NCBI GenBank assembly: GCA_955652715.1
Contig: CATPBS010000364.1
Location: forward strand, 1 to 6,554
Direction: 5' to 3'
DNA: 6,554 nucleotides
From: an uncultured Candidatus Udaeobacter sp.
Lineage (GTDB): Bacteria > Verrucomicrobiota > Verrucomicrobiia > Chthoniobacterales > UBA10450
The notes under the pieces were generated by a model. The model ran no database searches, had not been told where the DNA came from, and was given only the letters and a program-made list of their open reading frames with translations. This document shows, one piece after another, positions 1 through 4,444 of this stretch. Both the position numbers and the translations under genes were made by a program. How positions within the stretch are numbered: the first letter of the stretch is position 1; every line of letters begins with the position of its first letter.

Positions 1-864
1 ATTGTCCTTGAACATGTTGGTCTCCAGCCTACCATAATAAATGAAATTGTTGTTGTCGTTATTAGTGATGTTCCGACCGTTTCCGTTGAAAATGCCAGCA
101 TAGTATGTCAGCAGATCTGCTGCGTCAGGCCAGATGGTCGCGAACGGTTTTCCCCAGAGCTGAATGCCAATCTGTCGCTCCGGTGTGATCGCGCCGGTCG
201 GTAGAGTTCGTTCGATCGTGTACAGCGAAGTGTCCGGAGTCAGCTGCTCCAAACCAAACGGCGCTTTCCACTGACCCACCTTGATCTGCGCCCAGGGGAA
301 TTGATGCCAGTTGATAAAAATGTCCGTGGCCTCGAACGCCGTTCGGCTCGAATTAAGTCCGTCGCTGCTTTCAAAGTCGCCTTCCAGCTTGAAATCGAAT
401 TGCTCGGCAAAATCGCCGGTCAGATTGATTCGTGCGCGGCGCAGACGAAACCGATCTTTTAAGGCGGTCTGACCAAAACGGCCCTCGAACGCCGAGACAT
501 CTCCATCTTCGAAATTCATCTGGATGAATCCGCCCAGCACCAGTTTCAATTCCGGTCCACGCTGCTGCACGTAGACCGGCGGTTTTTCTTCGACGACAGC
601 TTTCTCGACGTACGTTTTTCCATCGTAAGTCACCTTTGTTTTGAATTTCCCGTCGGGCGGATAAGCAGCCTCCTTAGATTTCAAGCTGTTGACCTCCCCT
701 TGCAGCTCGGCGTTTTGCTTTTCCAATAACTCCACCGCGCGCTCGAGTTTCTTGAGTCGCTCGGCATCGGATGACGCCTGAGCTCTGAGCGGCTGCGCCG
801 CTAGTGAAAGAACTACAGCCAGGCTGGCGCCTGCTGCTCGTAAGACGACTTTTTTGGTGAACAT
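1..864 (-). CDS. Phosphate-selective porin O/P family, N-terminal part (C-terminus outside window)
   Basis: Open reading frame of 288 codons running off the left edge. Residues 1-28 form a signal peptide: KK near the N-terminus, hydrophobic core 10-23, probable cleavage after LRA28 or QA30. Residues 33-62 are a heptad-like charged helix (AERLKKLERAVELLEKQ), the N-terminal coiled coil common in trimeric porins of this group. The barrel begins near 106 with LKLVLGGFIQ. Family-type stretches follow: RFRLRRARINLTGDF (138-152), FDFKLEGDF (156-164), GQWKAPFGLEQLTPD, then the ERTLP and ERQIGIQLWG segments. OprO/OprP porins carry phosphate or polyphosphate across the outer membrane, but many homologues have unproven substrates. 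The start is fixed by AAAGGAGA six bases upstream of the ATG. A Pho-box-like array lies 84 bp upstream, which supports a phosphate role. Confidence 0.9.
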   Translation of the reverse strand, partial: MFTKKVVLRAAGASLAVVLSLAAQPLRAQASSDAERLKKLERAVELLEKQNAELQGEVNSLKSKEAAYPPDGKFKTKVTYDGKTYVEKAVVEEKPPVYVQQRGPELKLVLGGFIQMNFEDGDVSAFEGRFGQTALKDRFRLRRARINLTGDFAEQFDFKLEGDFESSDGLNSSRTAFEATDIFINWHQFPWAQIKVGQWKAPFGLEQLTPDTSLYTIERTLPTGAITPERQIGIQLWGKPFATIWPDAADLLTYYAGIFNGNGRNITNNDNNNFIYYGRLETNMFKDN

Positions 865-1053: not shown

Positions 1054-1087
1054 TTTGTAATAAACCGCTGGGGCCGCGACTTTACTT
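1054..1087 (+). promoter_or_regulatory. Putative ECF-type promoter of the sigma/anti-sigma operon
   Basis: A 34-base element with a TTTGTAATAAAC block (1054-1065) and a CGACTTTA block (1077-1084) lies 23 bp before the sigma-factor ATG. It recurs ungapped at 4388-4421, in front of the RND pump gene, with 27 of 34 identical positions. The two blocks sit at -35/-10-like spacing, so an autoregulated ECF promoter is the likely reading. A repressor operator is the alternative. The exact sigma specificity cannot be read from the sequence. Confidence 0.55.
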
Positions 1088-1110
1088 TACTAAGATCGAC
1101 ATCTACGGCG

Positions 1111-1662
1111 ATGGATCGCGAGGAACAAAGAGATCGATTTTTAAGTCTGCTCAGGCCGATCGAGCGCGATCTCGAAAACTATTCGCGGCGCATGGTGTTT
1201 GATCGGCGCGATTGCGAAGACGCGTTGCAAAACGCGGTGCTGCGCGCTTTTCGCGCCTTCGATCGCTATCACGATGACGCGAGCTTTCGCGCCTGGATGT
1301 TCAAGATTCTGACGAACGAAATTTTTGCCGCGAACCGCAAGCGCGGTCGCATTGCCGAGTTCGAGATCGCTATCGAGCCTGAGGAGATAGAAGAATTCGC
1401 CGGCCTCGACTTCACCGCTGATGCGCCAATCTCATGGGAAACGCTGTCCGACGCGCTGGATGAAGAGCTGCTCGTAGCCTTGCAAAGCTTGAACGACTCC
1501 GAGCGCGCTGTCCTGCTCATGCGCGCGATCGGCGAGTTGCGTTATCGCGAAATCAGCGAGTGCCTCGGCGTTCCGCTAGGCAGCGTGATGGGAAATCTTT
1601 CACGCGCGCGTCAAAAAATGCGCGATGCCATTTTGCGGGCGCGAAGGAGATCATGCTTATGA
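1111..1662 (+). CDS. ECF-family RNA polymerase sigma factor (sigma-70 type, 183 aa)
   Basis: This protein directs RNA polymerase to a dedicated promoter set. Region sigma-2 spans about residues 10-79, with the typical DCEDALQNAVLRAFRAF helix (34-50) and the FRAWMFKILTNE segment (59-70) used for core binding and -10 recognition. An acidic linker (about 84-120) follows. Region sigma-4 (about 118-173) holds LNDSERAVLLMRAIGELRYREISECLGV in two halves, with the helix-turn-helix at 145-171 ending in GSVMGNLSRARQKMR. Length is normal for an ECF factor and there is no C-terminal extension. No strong Shine-Dalgarno precedes the ATG; the frame upstream is closed by TGA at 1051 with no other good start. 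The last codons overlap the anti-sigma start, so the two are probably translationally coupled. A motif shared with the RND gene lies just upstream, suggesting autoregulation. Confidence 0.93.
   Translation: MDREEQRDRFLSLLRPIERDLENYSRRMVFDRRDCEDALQNAVLRAFRAFDRYHDDASFRAWMFKILTNEIFAANRKRGRIAEFEIAIEPEEIEEFAGLDFTADAPISWETLSDALDEELLVALQSLNDSERAVLLMRAIGELRYREISECLGVPLGSVMGNLSRARQKMRDAILRARRRSCL
1644..1649 (+). promoter_or_regulatory. Ribosome binding site deciding the anti-sigma start
   Basis: AAGGAG lies inside the end of the sigma gene. It is 9 bases from the ATG at 1659 but only 3 bases from the in-frame ATG at 1653, so 1659 is the better start. The ATGA at 1659-1662 overlaps the sigma-factor stop. 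Confidence 0.7.
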
Positions 1663-2423
1663 AGTGCGGGGAAGTCAGAAAATTTGTGCGCCTCTATCTC
1701 GATTCCGAGCTGGACGCCAAACAGAGTTTTGAAGTCGAACAGCATCTCGAATCCTGCGCGGAATGTGCAGGTTTGTTTCAGGCAGAGAAAAAATTCGACG
1801 AGCGGCTCGGTCGATTTTTGCGACACGGCCAGTTGACGCGCCCCTTTTGGAAAAAGATCGAAGCATTGATCGCGCCGCGGCCGTTTGCGAAGGTCAAAAT
1901 ACTTTGGCCACTTGCGTTGGCAGCGTCGCTTGTCATTGCTGCGGGCACCGTTCTCGTCGCGAGATCGAGGCCTCTCGATCTTGCGAACGCAGTGGAGGAA
2001 TGCCACAGCGCTTATGTTCATCAAATCACCACGCCGGAGTTCAGCGGCGCGGTGCCGACCAAGATTGCGCAACAATTCGGCGGCCGGCTCGACACGGCGG
2101 CTTTTGATTACCGGCCTTCGGAGCCGGGGTTCACTTCCAGCGGCGCGCGGTTGTGCCACGTCGGAGGCGTTCCGGTCGCGCTGATCCTCGGTCACTGCGC
2201 TGAGACACCGGTGTCGCTGATCGTCTTTAGAAAAAGCGAGCTCGATCATTTTCCGCAAACGAAGCGGAAGCTGGAATCCGGCGATCCAATCGCCTGCAGC
2301 CGCTCGGGCCGTTATCAATTCGCGGCGCGTTTTATCGATGATCATGTCGTTTGCATAGTCGGCGACAGGCCGCGACCGGTGCTCGAGGATTTATTGAAAA
2401 CGCTGCGCCGCGCCGATGGTTAA
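1659..2423 (+). CDS. Zinc-finger anti-sigma factor with one membrane span (254 aa)
   Basis: The expected role is to bind and silence the ECF sigma factor encoded just upstream until a signal is sensed. Residues 1-50 are a zinc-finger anti-sigma domain (zf-HC2/ZAS type): Cys3, then LYLDSELDA, then HLESCAEC giving His29-x3-Cys33-x2-Cys36. A basic stretch (61-80) leads into one hydrophobic segment at about 81-101 (ILWPLALAASLVIAAGTVLV). The remaining 150 residues should lie outside the cytoplasm. That domain carries Cys115, Cys166 (in LCHVGG), Cys180 (GHC), Cys213 and Cys232, an unusual number for an exported domain, and could sense metal or redox state. Start at 1659 is chosen from the Shine-Dalgarno spacing; the open frame continues upstream to 1560 but that part is a shadow of the sigma gene. 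Anti-sigma identity is firm; the signal sensed is unknown. Confidence 0.88.
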   Translation: MKCGEVRKFVRLYLDSELDAKQSFEVEQHLESCAECAGLFQAEKKFDERLGRFLRHGQLTRPFWKKIEALIAPRPFAKVKILWPLALAASLVIAAGTVLVARSRPLDLANAVEECHSAYVHQITTPEFSGAVPTKIAQQFGGRLDTAAFDYRPSEPGFTSSGARLCHVGGVPVALILGHCAETPVSLIVFRKSELDHFPQTKRKLESGDPIACSRSGRYQFAARFIDDHVVCIVGDRPRPVLEDLLKTLRRADG

Positions 2424-2666
2424 GGCGGTGGTCGGCGCCGTGCTCGCCGAATGTCTAGCCGAGATCAGCGTGGCGGCTGTCTCGATTTCGGTTAGGCATT
2501 GGCGCGATCGAATGCAGTATCAGCGCATTTTCGCGGTGAGGCTAAAACTTGTCTCGTTGCTTTGCCGCGGACCTTCCTAGGAAATCTTGGCCATCGGATC
2601 GCCTGCCATACTGGCTTTCACCTTGGTCCGATATTGGCTGGCGCCGGCGGGTGCCGGCTCGGTGCG
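2424..2666. other. Intergenic region between convergent genes
   Basis: These 243 bases separate the anti-sigma stop from the stop of the DUF2127 gene. A 54-codon plus-strand frame (2416-2580, starting MVKAVVGAVL) overlaps the anti-sigma stop but has no Shine-Dalgarno and no recognisable domain, so it is not called as a gene. A perfect ten-base palindrome, TTCCTAGGAA, lies at 2574-2583. No tRNA or known RNA was recognised. Confidence 0.5.
2643..2658 (-). terminator. Possible terminator hairpin after DUF2127 gene (weak)
   Basis: GCCGGC at 2643-2648 and GCCGGC at 2653-2658 can pair as a six-base, all-GC stem with a four-base loop. It begins 8 bases beyond the stop codon of the minus-strand gene. 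No run of T follows on either strand, so it is not a classical intrinsic terminator and may only stall or protect the transcript. Confidence 0.25.
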
Positions 2667-3161
2667 TCAGGCGAAGGCTTGCTTGCGGGCCTGGTACTCA
2701 CGCCAGATTAAGAACGCGACGATTAGATCGACAATACTTAGCGCGATCATCCAGAGCGAGTGAGTGAAAAAGAAACGGTATGCTTGATAAGCGATGAAGC
2801 CGGCGAGGAACCAAAGCGAAACCGGATATGACCAGAGTCGGCGCCTTAGCAGCCCTGCGACGAGGAAAACTTTGATGATGCCATGAACGATTAGATATCC
2901 GCTGGCGAATAATTTCGTATCTGCGGTAAGGTCATGAATCATGCGCTGGAGGAGGATTGCAACGCGGTCGGTTGGATCTTCCGCCAGTTCGGGGGCGGTC
3001 AGAAAGACGACAAGCGCGTTCAGTCCTGTGTGAGGAATAAACAGTAAGAGCAGCCCACCGATTGTCTCGAGTAGGCCGGCGATCCCTTTGCTCCAAACGC
3101 TAAGCAGGAAGAACGTGTGCTCGATCTTGCGTTCGACACCGGTTGACGGGTGAGAAGACAT
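2667..3161 (-). CDS. DUF2127 family integral membrane protein (164 aa)
   Basis: A small inner-membrane protein whose biochemical function is not established. Four hydrophobic segments are visible: about 24-43 (KGIAGLLETIGGLLLLFI), 85-104 (FASGYLIVHGIIKVFLVAGL), 109-128 (LWSYPVSLWFLAGFIAYQ) and 133-153. The pattern KGIAGLLE...GYLIVHGIIK...LLRRRLWSYP...FIAYQAYRF is what I recognise as DUF2127. Between the first two spans is a polar loop (58-82) that should lie on one membrane face. The gene begins 4 bp after the stop of the upstream beta-barrel gene, so they are probably co-transcribed. There is no clear Shine-Dalgarno in the end of the upstream gene, which suggests coupling to its translation. 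Family assignment is from memory of the motif pattern, without an alignment. Confidence 0.75.
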   Translation of the reverse strand: MSSHPSTGVERKIEHTFFLLSVWSKGIAGLLETIGGLLLLFIPHTGLNALVVFLTAPELAEDPTDRVAILLQRMIHDLTADTKLFASGYLIVHGIIKVFLVAGLLRRRLWSYPVSLWFLAGFIAYQAYRFFFTHSLWMIALSIVDLIVAFLIWREYQARKQAFA

Positions 3162-3165
3162 GGGT

Positions 3166-4050
3166 TCAGTGGCTGCGCGCGGACGCGGGCGTTTCTACCT
3201 CGCCAGCGGTGGGTCCGCCGAAGGAGAACGAAAACAGCCCGAACACTTCCACCGCAGGTGTGTGATCACTAGTTCCGATGAGCGGCGAGAGATCAAAGCG
3301 CGCGTTCTTCGTCGGGCGCCATGCTAATGTGGGCCCGATGGCCAAACCTTTTGTTGTGCCCTTACGCCCGGGTGCCTCACCGCAGCTGCGGTATTGCATT
3401 TCCAGTCCGACCTCGAGTTTTTCTTCCGGTAAAAGGACGGGGACTTCGACGCTCTGCGCGAAACCTGCGCTGGTTGATTGTCGGCCGCCAAACTCGCGAT
3501 CCACGAAGATGTTCATCGCCCACTCGATAAGGTGAGGAAAATCGTGCGAGATCAGGAGCGCAAGCTCTCCCGAATCGGGCAATGCGTTGCTGAGGCCAAA
3601 CCGATACCCAGCGGAGATAGCGGGGTTGAGCGGCAGCTTGTTCCAATTAGCAAGCGCGTAGCGCGCTTCGAGAGTGAAGCTGCGGTCGCGAGTCTCTCCG
3701 GCGAAGTGCTCAATCTGGTTTTGTATGCCAACGGTGACACGCGCAGGCAGCCCCATTTCGATCTCCTGCCGGAAAAGCTGGCTCGGCAGGCCGTGACGAA
3801 AGACGGCGCCCTCATACCCAGCTTCAAATTCGAAGCTGAAAGGCGAAAGCACATACGACTTTGTGAGCGTAGAGATGCGGCCATGTGATAGATCGGGCGG
3901 GGCGCCGTAGGCGCTTGGCAGCTCTTCGGCTTCAGCCTGTACGACAACGTTGTGAGTGACCGCCTCCTGGGCTATGGCCGACCAGGCACAGACGACTGAC
4001 GCCAAAACTTGCACAAGGAAAACGCGCGAAAAAACTCCGCGTGCGGACAT
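3166..4050 (-). CDS. Probable outer-membrane beta-barrel protein of unknown function (294 aa)
   Basis: Starting from the ATG at 4050, residues 1-27 form a good signal peptide: Arg4 and Arg9, hydrophobic core 10-25, cleavage site AIA27-Gln28. After a short linker (AEAEELPSAYGAPPD) the chain alternates in the manner of beta-strands with aromatic ends, for example FSFEFEAGYEG, SFTLEARYALANW, AISAGYRFGLS, KLEVGLEMQYRS and the terminal VFGLFSFSFGG. A 14-residue polar tail follows the last strand. I do not recognise a specific family; a porin-like or MetA-type transporter barrel is possible. The frame stays open upstream to an ATG at 4185, but the extra 45 residues precede the signal peptide and are arginine- and cysteine-rich, so that start looks wrong. 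No Shine-Dalgarno supports either start. The gene is the first of a probable operon with DUF2127. Confidence 0.7.
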   Translation of the reverse strand: MSARGVFSRVFLVQVLASVVCAWSAIAQEAVTHNVVVQAEAEELPSAYGAPPDLSHGRISTLTKSYVLSPFSFEFEAGYEGAVFRHGLPSQLFRQEIEMGLPARVTVGIQNQIEHFAGETRDRSFTLEARYALANWNKLPLNPAISAGYRFGLSNALPDSGELALLISHDFPHLIEWAMNIFVDREFGGRQSTSAGFAQSVEVPVLLPEEKLEVGLEMQYRSCGEAPGRKGTTKGLAIGPTLAWRPTKNARFDLSPLIGTSDHTPAVEVFGLFSFSFGGPTAGEVETPASARSH

Positions 4051-4136
4051 TAATGGAGGGTCCGGCTGCGCGCCGAAGTAGAGCCGGCTCACACCGTCAC
4101 GTTTAGCGCAAGATGGACAAGCGTGCCATTCGCTTC

Positions 4137-4164
4137 GTGATCGCGGGCTGCGCTGAAAATTACA
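4137..4164 (-). promoter_or_regulatory. Weak candidate promoter for the beta-barrel/DUF2127 unit
   Basis: The minus strand reads TGTAAT at 4164-4159 and CCGCGA at 4146-4141, the same blocks at the same spacing as in the element before the sigma gene (TGTAAT...CCGCGA). The AAA and the CTTTA parts are absent. The spacing agreement is suggestive, but about half of the positions differ, so chance is not excluded. Confidence 0.25.
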
Positions 4165-4219
4165 GTCCGCGGCACACGAATTCAAAACGCTGCTCTGATC
4201 TCATAAAAAAGAAATCTGC

Positions 4220-4232
4220 TTTGCGATGCAAA
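4220..4232. repeat. Short inverted repeat, possible operator
   Basis: TTTGC-GAT-GCAAA is a perfect five-base dyad around a three-base centre, in the middle of a divergent regulatory region. Such a dyad could bind a dimeric regulator, but it is short enough to be accidental. Confidence 0.25.
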
Positions 4233-4360
4233 CGTTCTTCGGCTCGGTCAAGGAGCGGGGCGCTTGGTCGCGCCGAAGGCTTTCGCGGCCGACGCCGCTT
4301 TGTTTCATGCTGCTGAATCGGGCGCGTGCAGGTCCTTCAAGCGTTGCGTCAATGTCACAG

Positions 4361-4444
4361 GCCGATGGTTAAAGCCGAAGCAATTCTTTTGTAATAAACG
4401 GCGGTCGCCACGGCTTTATTTGGGCAAGAGCCGATGGTTAAAGC
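4361..4444 (+). repeat. 15-bp direct repeat carrying ATGGTTAAAGC, second copy at the RND start
   Basis: GCCGATGGTTAAAGC occurs at 4361-4375 and again at 4430-4444, 69 bp apart and in the same frame. The second copy contains the RND start codon. The first opens a nine-codon frame (4365-4394, MVKAEAILL then TAA) whose stop falls inside the promoter motif. The first twelve bases also occur at 2412-2423, across the anti-sigma stop codon. Confidence 0.6.
4388..4421 (+). promoter_or_regulatory. Putative ECF-type promoter of the RND efflux gene
   Basis: This is the second copy of the element found before the sigma gene: TTTGTAATAAAC is identical (4388-4399), CGGCTTTA (4411-4418) corresponds to CGACTTTA, and 27 of 34 bases agree without gaps. 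It ends 12 bp before the RND start, so a transcript from it would have a very short leader, in keeping with the lack of a good Shine-Dalgarno. The copy also contains a dyad, AATAAA (4393-4398) with TTTATT (4415-4420), so a repressor site is an alternative. Confidence 0.55.

What the first reader, a model, noticed from the sequence alone, without database searches (positions are those of the whole stretch)
1054..4421. Same 34-bp promoter-like element before the ECF sigma operon and before the RND pump
Positions 1054-1087 and 4388-4421 align ungapped with 27 of 34 identities, including a 12-base identical TTTGTAATAAAC and a CG(A/G)CTTTA block. Both lie just upstream of a start codon (23 and 12 bp). 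ECF factors commonly drive their own operon and a few targets, so the pump is a strong candidate target of this sigma factor. This gives a self-contained circuit: sigma, anti-sigma, efflux pump. The link to this sigma factor is inference.
Basis: partly seen in the sequence, partly recalled or inferred. Interest (0 to 1): 0.7.

Follow-up and report, generated by a model that had tools for sequence, protein, structure and literature searches.

The report
Sigma promoter copied before efflux pump
A bacterium of the Verrucomicrobia carries the same short promoter-like DNA motif before a stress-type sigma gene and before an efflux-pump gene; the motif stands before this sigma gene in all nine relatives examined and is nearly absent from related genomes in which that gene was not found, so the sigma factor likely switches on both itself and the pump, and the second copy was probably gained by copying the first.

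Summary
In detail: positions 1054-1087 and 4388-4421 agree at 27 of 34 bases, the best such pair in the window (0 of 40 shuffles reach 27). TGTAAYAAA stands before the sigma gene in the window and all nine orthologous loci; two boxes, TGTAAYAAA and GACTTT, are conserved while spacer and flanks vary. Exact genome-wide matches in 213 genomes of the order are ten: nine lie before this sigma gene or its pump, in exactly the six genomes where the sigma was found; one lies inside a recF-like ORF. A small self-contained regulon is well supported, but no transcription was measured.

Relatives show the history. In six of the eight with a readable junction, sigma, anti-sigma and pump follow each other with only the first motif; in two of these, stop and start codons overlap. 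The window and two relatives have a second copy before the pump, flanked in the window by a duplicated 15-bp gene junction. Only the window also has a two-gene cassette inserted, so its pump likely depends on the second copy. The nearest known circuit is CnrH/cnrCBAT. The anti-sigma has a predicted RseB-like outer domain with three invariant cysteines.

The parts
1056..1084 (+). P1, predicted sigma-dependent promoter of the sigma/anti-sigma operon: -35 TGTAATAAA (1056-1064), 12-nt spacer, -10 CGACTTTA (1077-1084)
   Evidence: TGTAAYAAA before sigma in window and 9 of 9 orthologous loci; boxes conserved against spacer and flanks; order-wide exact matches
1111..1662 (+). ECF sigma factor (regions 2 and 4 only)
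   Evidence: Sigma70_r2 and Sigma70_r4_2; TIGR02937 above its cutoff; nearest solved sequences are SigH chains
1653..2423 (+). anti-sigma factor: zinc-finger (zf-HC2) anti-sigma domain, predicted membrane helix, RseB/MucB C-terminal-like outer domain (start may be ATG 1659, as in the orthologues)
   Evidence: zf-HC2; model and PDB matches; weak MucB_RseB_C hits in 13 of 39 homologues
2412..2423 (+). junction repeat, copy 1 (GCCGATGGTTAA): 3' end and stop codon of the anti-sigma gene
2424..4360 (.). inserted cassette that splits the sigma/anti-sigma/pump row
   Evidence: absent at this junction in L033-L040; the gene pair occurs elsewhere in G013 and G005
2667..3161 (-). DUF2127 membrane protein (cassette)
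   Evidence: PF09900
3166..4050 (-). predicted outer-membrane-type protein, no family match (cassette; function is a guess from its sequence)
   Evidence: 0 families in Pfam and NCBIfam at E<=0.001; conserved beside DUF2127 in L090 and L091
4361..4375 (+). junction repeat, copy 2 (GCCGATGGTTAAAGC), left border of the promoter-bearing insert
4390..4418 (+). P2, predicted sigma-dependent promoter of the pump: -35 TGTAATAAA (4390-4398), 12-nt spacer, -10 CGGCTTTA (4411-4418)
   Evidence: kept in L033 and L034 with 0 of 17 box columns varying against 6 of 12 spacer columns
4430..4444 (+). junction repeat, copy 3 (GCCGATGGTTAAAGC), holding the pump start codon
4434..6554 (+). RND pump inner-membrane subunit, cut by the contig end; in L035 followed by adaptor and outer-membrane channel genes
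   Evidence: ACR_tran; L035: RND_mfp above cutoff and OEP

Best explanation
The two motif copies are likely promoters recognised by the ECF sigma factor encoded between them: P1 would switch on sigma and anti-sigma, and P2, probably a copy of P1, would switch on the RND efflux pump. At rest the anti-sigma factor, predicted to be membrane-anchored, would hold the sigma factor; an envelope signal sensed through its outer RseB-like domain would release it (both inferred). Free sigma would then amplify its own operon from P1 and induce the pump (inferred). In six of eight relatives with a readable junction the pump follows sigma and anti-sigma with only P1 before the row (gene order shown; joint transcription inferred). 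In the window and two relatives a P1-like segment sits at the anti-sigma/pump junction (shown), probably copied from a P1 and joined at the shared start-codon context CCGATGG (inferred). In the window a two-gene cassette also lies between anti-sigma and P2 (shown by comparison; that it came after P2 is inferred), leaving P2 as the pump's likely only link to the circuit.
For: TGTAAYAAA at a fixed 12-nt spacing from a second box before the sigma gene in the window and 9 of 9 orthologous loci, sigma identity down to 59%; GACTTT in 9 of these 10 (L040 differs). Box columns vary less than spacer and flanks: P1 n=5, 1 of 17 against 35 of 44, Fisher p=1.4e-7; P1 n=10, 6 of 17 against 43 of 44, p=3.2e-7; P2 n=3, 0 of 17 against 26 of 44, p=8.8e-6. 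Exact motif in 6 of 6 genomes with the sigma and 1 of 207 others of the order, p=5.8e-11; the exception lies inside a recF-like ORF. 0 of 33 distant sigma homologue loci have TGTAAYAAA in up to 400 nt before the matched stretch (only 62 nt available for L007). PLGSVMG, in the stretch that I take for the -35 recognition helix (recalled), is invariant in 10 of 10 orthologues. Pump orthologues (82% identity or more) are in 7 of 83 family genomes: the six sigma bearers and G059, whose gene is cut by the contig start. P1 of L034 and L036 shares 18-19 identical bases with P2 of L033 or L034, 9-10 beyond TGTAATAAA. No sigma-70-like site lies before either gene.
Against: No transcript, binding or mutant data. 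P2 is in only 3 of 9 loci whose junction was read. The window's and L033's own P1 share just 11-12 consecutive bases with the P2s; the closer likeness is to P1 of L034-L036, so the copy would stem from an older or another P1. The pump tree unites the three P2 bearers (100/99) but the sigma tree does not. L040 has a deviating -10 (TGGATTAC). The letters depart from the AAC/CGT hallmark (AAT in 9 of 10, never CGT). In the nine carrier genomes off-locus one-mismatch sites number 8 against 3 for the reversed control, so weak further targets are not excluded; in the family it is 3 against 10. The own genome is about 69% complete. Part of the P1/P2 likeness could be a longer functional element (A at -7 and T at -1 are invariant in 10 of 10).
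Confidence: 0.85

Rival explanations
1. The shared element is an operator for another regulator (repressor or activator) that happens to control both genes.
For: Sequence conservation alone cannot tell a promoter from an operator; no transcription start is mapped.
Against: Two boxes at a fixed 12-nt spacing with a free spacer fit a -35/-10 pair; the element tracks the sigma gene (6 of 6 against 1 of 207). I recognised no other regulator gene common to the loci in the ORF lists, but did not search for one systematically.
Confidence: 0.08
2. P2 is a functionless duplicate of P1; the pump is expressed from elsewhere.
For: P2 looks like a copy flanked by a duplicated junction; six of nine loci do without it.
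Against: In the three P2 copies 0 of 17 box columns vary against 6 of 12 spacer columns (Fisher p=0.0019), while third codon positions of the first 430 pump codons are only 0.61-0.80 identical among the three.
Confidence: 0.08
3. P1 and P2 are ordinary housekeeping promoters and the likeness is a general feature of promoters in this phylum.
For: Housekeeping promoters of these bacteria are poorly known (recalled, not searched).
Against: The exact motif is absent from 206 of 207 genomes of the order in which the sigma was not found; no TTGACA/TATAAT-like site overlaps either.
Confidence: 0.02

Closest known systems
CnrH/CnrYX - cnrCBAT of Cupriavidus metallidurans
   Same: An ECF sigma gene set with membrane anti-sigma next to RND efflux genes, with two sigma-dependent promoters, cnrYp before the regulator genes and cnrCp before the pump genes (passages of PMC9045368, and PMC4803752).
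   Different: CnrY is a class II anti-sigma (passages of PMC7406223) and works with CnrX; here a zf-HC2 anti-sigma with its own RseB-like domain and no further gene between sigma and pump in L033-L035 and L037-L040. The sigma is nearer to SigH than to CnrH. Substrate and signal unknown here.
SigH/SigR-type ECF sigma factors with zinc anti-sigma (RshA/RsrA), and SigW/RsiW
   Same: Nearest solved sigma sequences are SigH chains (5zx2 E=1.9e-15; 6jcy, a construct named after SigH and SigE, 5.9e-16). The anti-sigma N-terminus resembles RsrA (33.3 bits, below the 62.5 cutoff) and RsiW (E=0.0039).
   Different: RsrA and RshA are soluble redox sensors (recalled); here a predicted membrane helix and a large outer domain follow.
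RpoE/RseA/RseB and AlgU/MucA/MucB envelope stress systems
   Different: RseB/MucB are separate periplasmic proteins (recalled); here one such domain is joined to the anti-sigma itself, and RseB's larger N-terminal domain is not in the matched range.

Membership tests
ECF sigma factors (group IV) | only regions sigma-2 and sigma-4 as promoter-binding domains | tested here: met
   Sigma70_r2 18-80 and Sigma70_r4/r4_2 118-171 of 183 residues, no other Pfam family
ECF sigma factors (group IV) | co-encoded with a cognate anti-sigma gene | tested here: met
   anti-sigma homologue directly downstream in the window and over most of its length in 8 of 9 orthologous loci (in two pieces in L033); in L041 only residues 3-67 match. 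That it binds this sigma is not tested
ECF sigma factors (group IV) | positive autoregulation through an own promoter | not testable with these tools
   conserved motif before the gene in window plus 9 of 9 loci but no expression data
ECF sigma factors (group IV) | AAC in -35 and CGT in -10 (early hallmark as told in passages of PMC8103513, which says that later versions restricted the definition to the domains) | tested here: not met
   AAT in 9 of 10 and AAC in 1 of 10 (L037); CGA or a variant, never CGT
CnrH-type circuit | sigma-type promoter before both regulator genes and RND genes | tested here: inconclusive
   motif before both in window, L033 and L034; only the first in six of nine loci; activity not measured
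CnrH-type circuit | class II anti-sigma CnrY plus sensor CnrX | tested here: not met
   anti-sigma is zf-HC2; no further gene between sigma and pump in L033-L035 and L037-L040
CnrH-type circuit | response to cobalt/nickel | not testable with these tools
   no expression data
Zinc-binding class I anti-sigma domain | Hx3Cx2C motif | tested here: met
   H31, C35, C38 and C5 invariant in 39 of 39 aligned sequences
MucB/RseB C-terminal domain | fold of that domain | tested here: met
MucB/RseB C-terminal domain | sequence profile PF17188 | tested here: inconclusive
   weak hits in 13 of 39 homologues, best E=0.02; none for the window's protein
HME (CusA/CzcA) or HAE (AcrB) RND subfamily | curated subfamily score | tested here: inconclusive
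   ACR_tran clear, but the full-length L035 pump is below the cutoff of all 15 NCBIfam models listed

The most novel reading that the evidence does not exclude
A local promoter-copying event rewired an operon: the sigma factor's own promoter was copied, by microhomology at the start-codon context, onto the overlapping anti-sigma/pump junction, turning a one-promoter, translationally coupled row into a two-promoter CnrH-like circuit, and this second promoter then made it tolerable for a foreign gene pair to split the operon. The circuit is gated by a one-piece sensor, an anti-sigma factor joined to an RseB-like domain whose three invariant cysteines and histidine would sense metal or redox stress.
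Probability: 0.4. Interest if true: 0.6.

Novelty: new variant of a known kind. Interest (0 to 1): 0.45.

Why it matters
It gives uncultured Verrucomicrobia a concrete, testable sigma/promoter pair with a very small predicted regulon, and a natural case of how an operon can gain an internal promoter and be broken apart without losing control of its last genes. The sigma and its motif are also a candidate orthogonal switch. The RseB-like anti-sigma suggests a one-protein version of the two-protein RseA/RseB sensor.

Tried and rejected
Promoter spread in G491: three exact matches with identical spacers looked like copies before three genes, but the contigs share the same end sequence, so they are one locus with assembly branches. 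Further targets: all 12 off-locus one- or two-mismatch sites that I looked at lie within ORFs of at least 110 aa on one strand or the other; such ORFs are common in GC-rich DNA, one site (L081) covers the first codons of its ORF, and two (L049 of the own genome, L074) have a same-strand ORF 252 and 117 nt downstream, so weak targets are not excluded. The exact match in G504 is inside a recF-like ORF (function named from its sequence, not from a family search). Transfer of the P2-pump unit by recombination: pump third positions between window and L034 (0.80) exceed sigma (0.69) and anti-sigma (0.75), too little to claim it. A phylum sample of 387 genomes gave the sigma only in the own genome at E<=1e-30, with at most 8 candidates scored per genome, although L038-L041 show that orthologues exist outside the family. 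Known RNA families: none in the window. Papers: of PMC4803752, PMC9045368, PMC12153292, PMC8103513 and PMC7406223 I saw passages only; of all others, search listings with abstract starts. Searches for motif letters (no paper), for this kind of sigma in Chthoniobacter, for promoter copying, for RseB-like fused anti-sigmas and for two-promoter efflux circuits listed nothing on this system by title and abstract start; PMC7406223 says that anti-sigma groups keep characteristic fused domains, so the RseB-like fusion may already be covered there. I claim no absence from print beyond these listings.
Full report
What is in the window. The window is a whole contig (C364) of a 1.98 Mb, about 69% complete genome. 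The closest genomes with names are Verrucomicrobia and Chthoniobacterales metagenome-assembled genomes (the genome behind L033 is the same assembly as G015, of the window's genus). On the + strand lie an ECF sigma gene (1111-1662), an anti-sigma gene with a zf-HC2 domain (1653-2423) and the start of an RND pump gene (4434 to the contig end); on the - strand a porin (1-864), a DUF2127 gene (2667-3161) and an outer-membrane-type gene without family match (3166-4050).

The observation. The two 34-base stretches agree at 27 positions. This is the best ungapped 34-mer pair in the window; 40 shuffles reached at most 25. No sigma-70-like site stands before either gene.

Conservation before the sigma gene. 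A scan of genome contigs gave 14 loci, of which nine (L033-L041) encode orthologues (59-89% identity) and five (L042-L046) are distant, at most 34%. TGTAAYAAA stands upstream of the sigma start in the window and all nine; 12 nt plus one base further GACTTT follows in 9 of 10 (L040 has GGATTA). Mean information over the ten is 1.95 bits per column for the -35 box, 1.52 for the -10 box, 0.73 for the spacer and 0.37 upstream. In 33 of 33 distant sigma homologue loci (L005-L032 and L042-L046) there is no TGTAAYAAA in the 400 nt before the matched stretch, which often begins some 27 codons inside the gene (62 nt only for L007). The ten orthologues share an invariant PLGSVMG in region 4, which fits an unchanged -35 box.

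Genome-wide specificity. With up to two mismatches the own genome has the two exact sites and one other; the reversed control has two. In the family the sigma (E<=1e-40) is in 6 of 83 genomes and exact matches are nine, all in these six, six before sigma and three before the pump; with one mismatch three others appear against ten for the control. In the order the sigma is in 6 of 213 and there are ten exact matches: the same nine and one in G504 inside a recF-like ORF; the control gave one. That is 6 of 6 against 1 of 207, Fisher p=5.8e-11; many genomes are incomplete, so 'without sigma' means not found. Five of the genomes behind L033-L041 are the same assemblies as G015, G065, G100, G097 and G074 (same contigs and positions) and add nothing independent. 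In the other four, exact matches are only at the sigma gene (G488, G489, G491) or absent (G490, deviating -10); over all nine, one-mismatch sites elsewhere are 8 against 3 for the control. The pump goes with the sigma: orthologues of 82% identity or more are in 7 of 83 family genomes, the six sigma bearers and G059, where the contig starts inside the pump gene; an eighth match, in G094, is only 40% identical.

Gene order and the second promoter. In L035 family searches show sigma, anti-sigma, RND pump, adaptor and outer-membrane channel in one row; L034 (cut), L036, L037 and L040 have similar downstream ORFs that were not searched against families. In L035 and L037 the stop of the anti-sigma and the start of the pump overlap (gATGGTTAAa), with no second motif. 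In L038, L039 and L040 gaps of 9-40 nt without a motif separate them, in L036 a gap of 572 nt. In the window, L033 and L034 a second motif sits between them. In the window this insert is flanked by two perfect copies of GCCGATGGTTAAAGC (4361-4375, 4430-4444), the junction sequence that L035 has once; in L033 and L034 the left copy has drifted. P1 of L034 and L036 shares 18-19 consecutive bases with P2 of L033 or L034, 9-10 of them outside TGTAATAAA; the window's and L033's own P1 share only 11-12, and distant P1s share 1-3 bases upstream of the box with L034 and L036. P1 in L034-L036 runs into CCGATGG at the sigma start, P2 into CCGATGG at the pump start. I infer that P2 is a copy of a P1 joined at this short identity. 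P2 boxes are unchanged in three genomes while the spacer varies, which speaks for use. The pump tree unites the P2 bearers with 100/99 support; the sigma tree does not.

The split. Only the window has the DUF2127 gene pair between anti-sigma and P2, bordered by GCCGATGGTTAA at 2412 and 4361. The same pair exists at 91% and 83% DNA identity in G013 and G005, where the sigma was not found, without TGTAATAAA or junction repeat in the 5.3 and 4.0 kb fetched. So a gene pair of the genus was probably inserted here and the pump likely now relies on P2.

The anti-sigma. C5, H31, C35, C38 and, in the outer part, C168, C215, C234 and H118 are invariant in 39 of 39 sequences: the window, seven loci and 31 of the 120 homologues listed (249 found). 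The model (pLDDT 76.6 overall, block means 89-94 over 161-250) matches RseB and MucB C-terminal domains over residues 134-254, with weak support from PF17188 in 13 of 39 members. Sensing by this domain is inferred; its ligand is unknown.

Comparison. The architecture works like the CnrH circuit, which has CnrH-dependent promoters before both cnrYXH and cnrCBAT (passages of PMC9045368; PMC4803752). It is not a member: the anti-sigma is of another class (for CnrY) and the sigma is nearer to SigH than to CnrH. Against the hallmark AAC/CGT (passages of PMC8103513) the letters differ while the layout agrees.

Verdict. Shown: motif, conservation, specificity, gene order, insertion. Inferred: that this sigma reads both sites, the copy mechanism, the order of events, and the signal.

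Noticed in passing
window 1653-2423: The anti-sigma's outer domain resembles the RseB/MucB C-terminal domain and holds invariant C168, C215, C234 and H118 in 39 of 39 aligned homologues.
   Followed up: partly
window 1-864; L034 1-4939: The divergent porin is of the phosphate-porin family; in L034 it is followed by a PstS-type gene, a metallophosphoesterase, an arsenate-reductase-like gene (below its cutoff) and an ArsR-family gene.
   Followed up: no
window 2667-4050: A DUF2127 gene and an outer-membrane-type gene occur as a pair also in G013 and G005 of the genus.
   Followed up: partly
L033 1314-2076: The anti-sigma reading of L033 changes frame between about residues 195 and 210: a broken gene or an assembly error.
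   Followed up: no
L036 9317-9888: About 570 bp lie between anti-sigma and pump in L036 with no second promoter motif; content not resolved.
   Followed up: no
L070, L077, L080 (G491): Three contigs overlap at the promoter; two continue with different sequence inside the sigma gene, in one of them the likeness to sigma ends early: strain variants or assembly branches.
   Followed up: partly
P1 sites of window and L033-L041: An A seven bases before and a T one base before TGTAAYAAA are invariant in 10 of 10 P1 sites, so the recognised element may be longer than the usual -35 box.
   Followed up: no
G000:C286:2855-2883 (L049): The only other site of the own genome with two mismatches has a same-strand ORF of 318 aa 252 nt downstream; it lies inside an opposite-strand ORF.
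   Followed up: no
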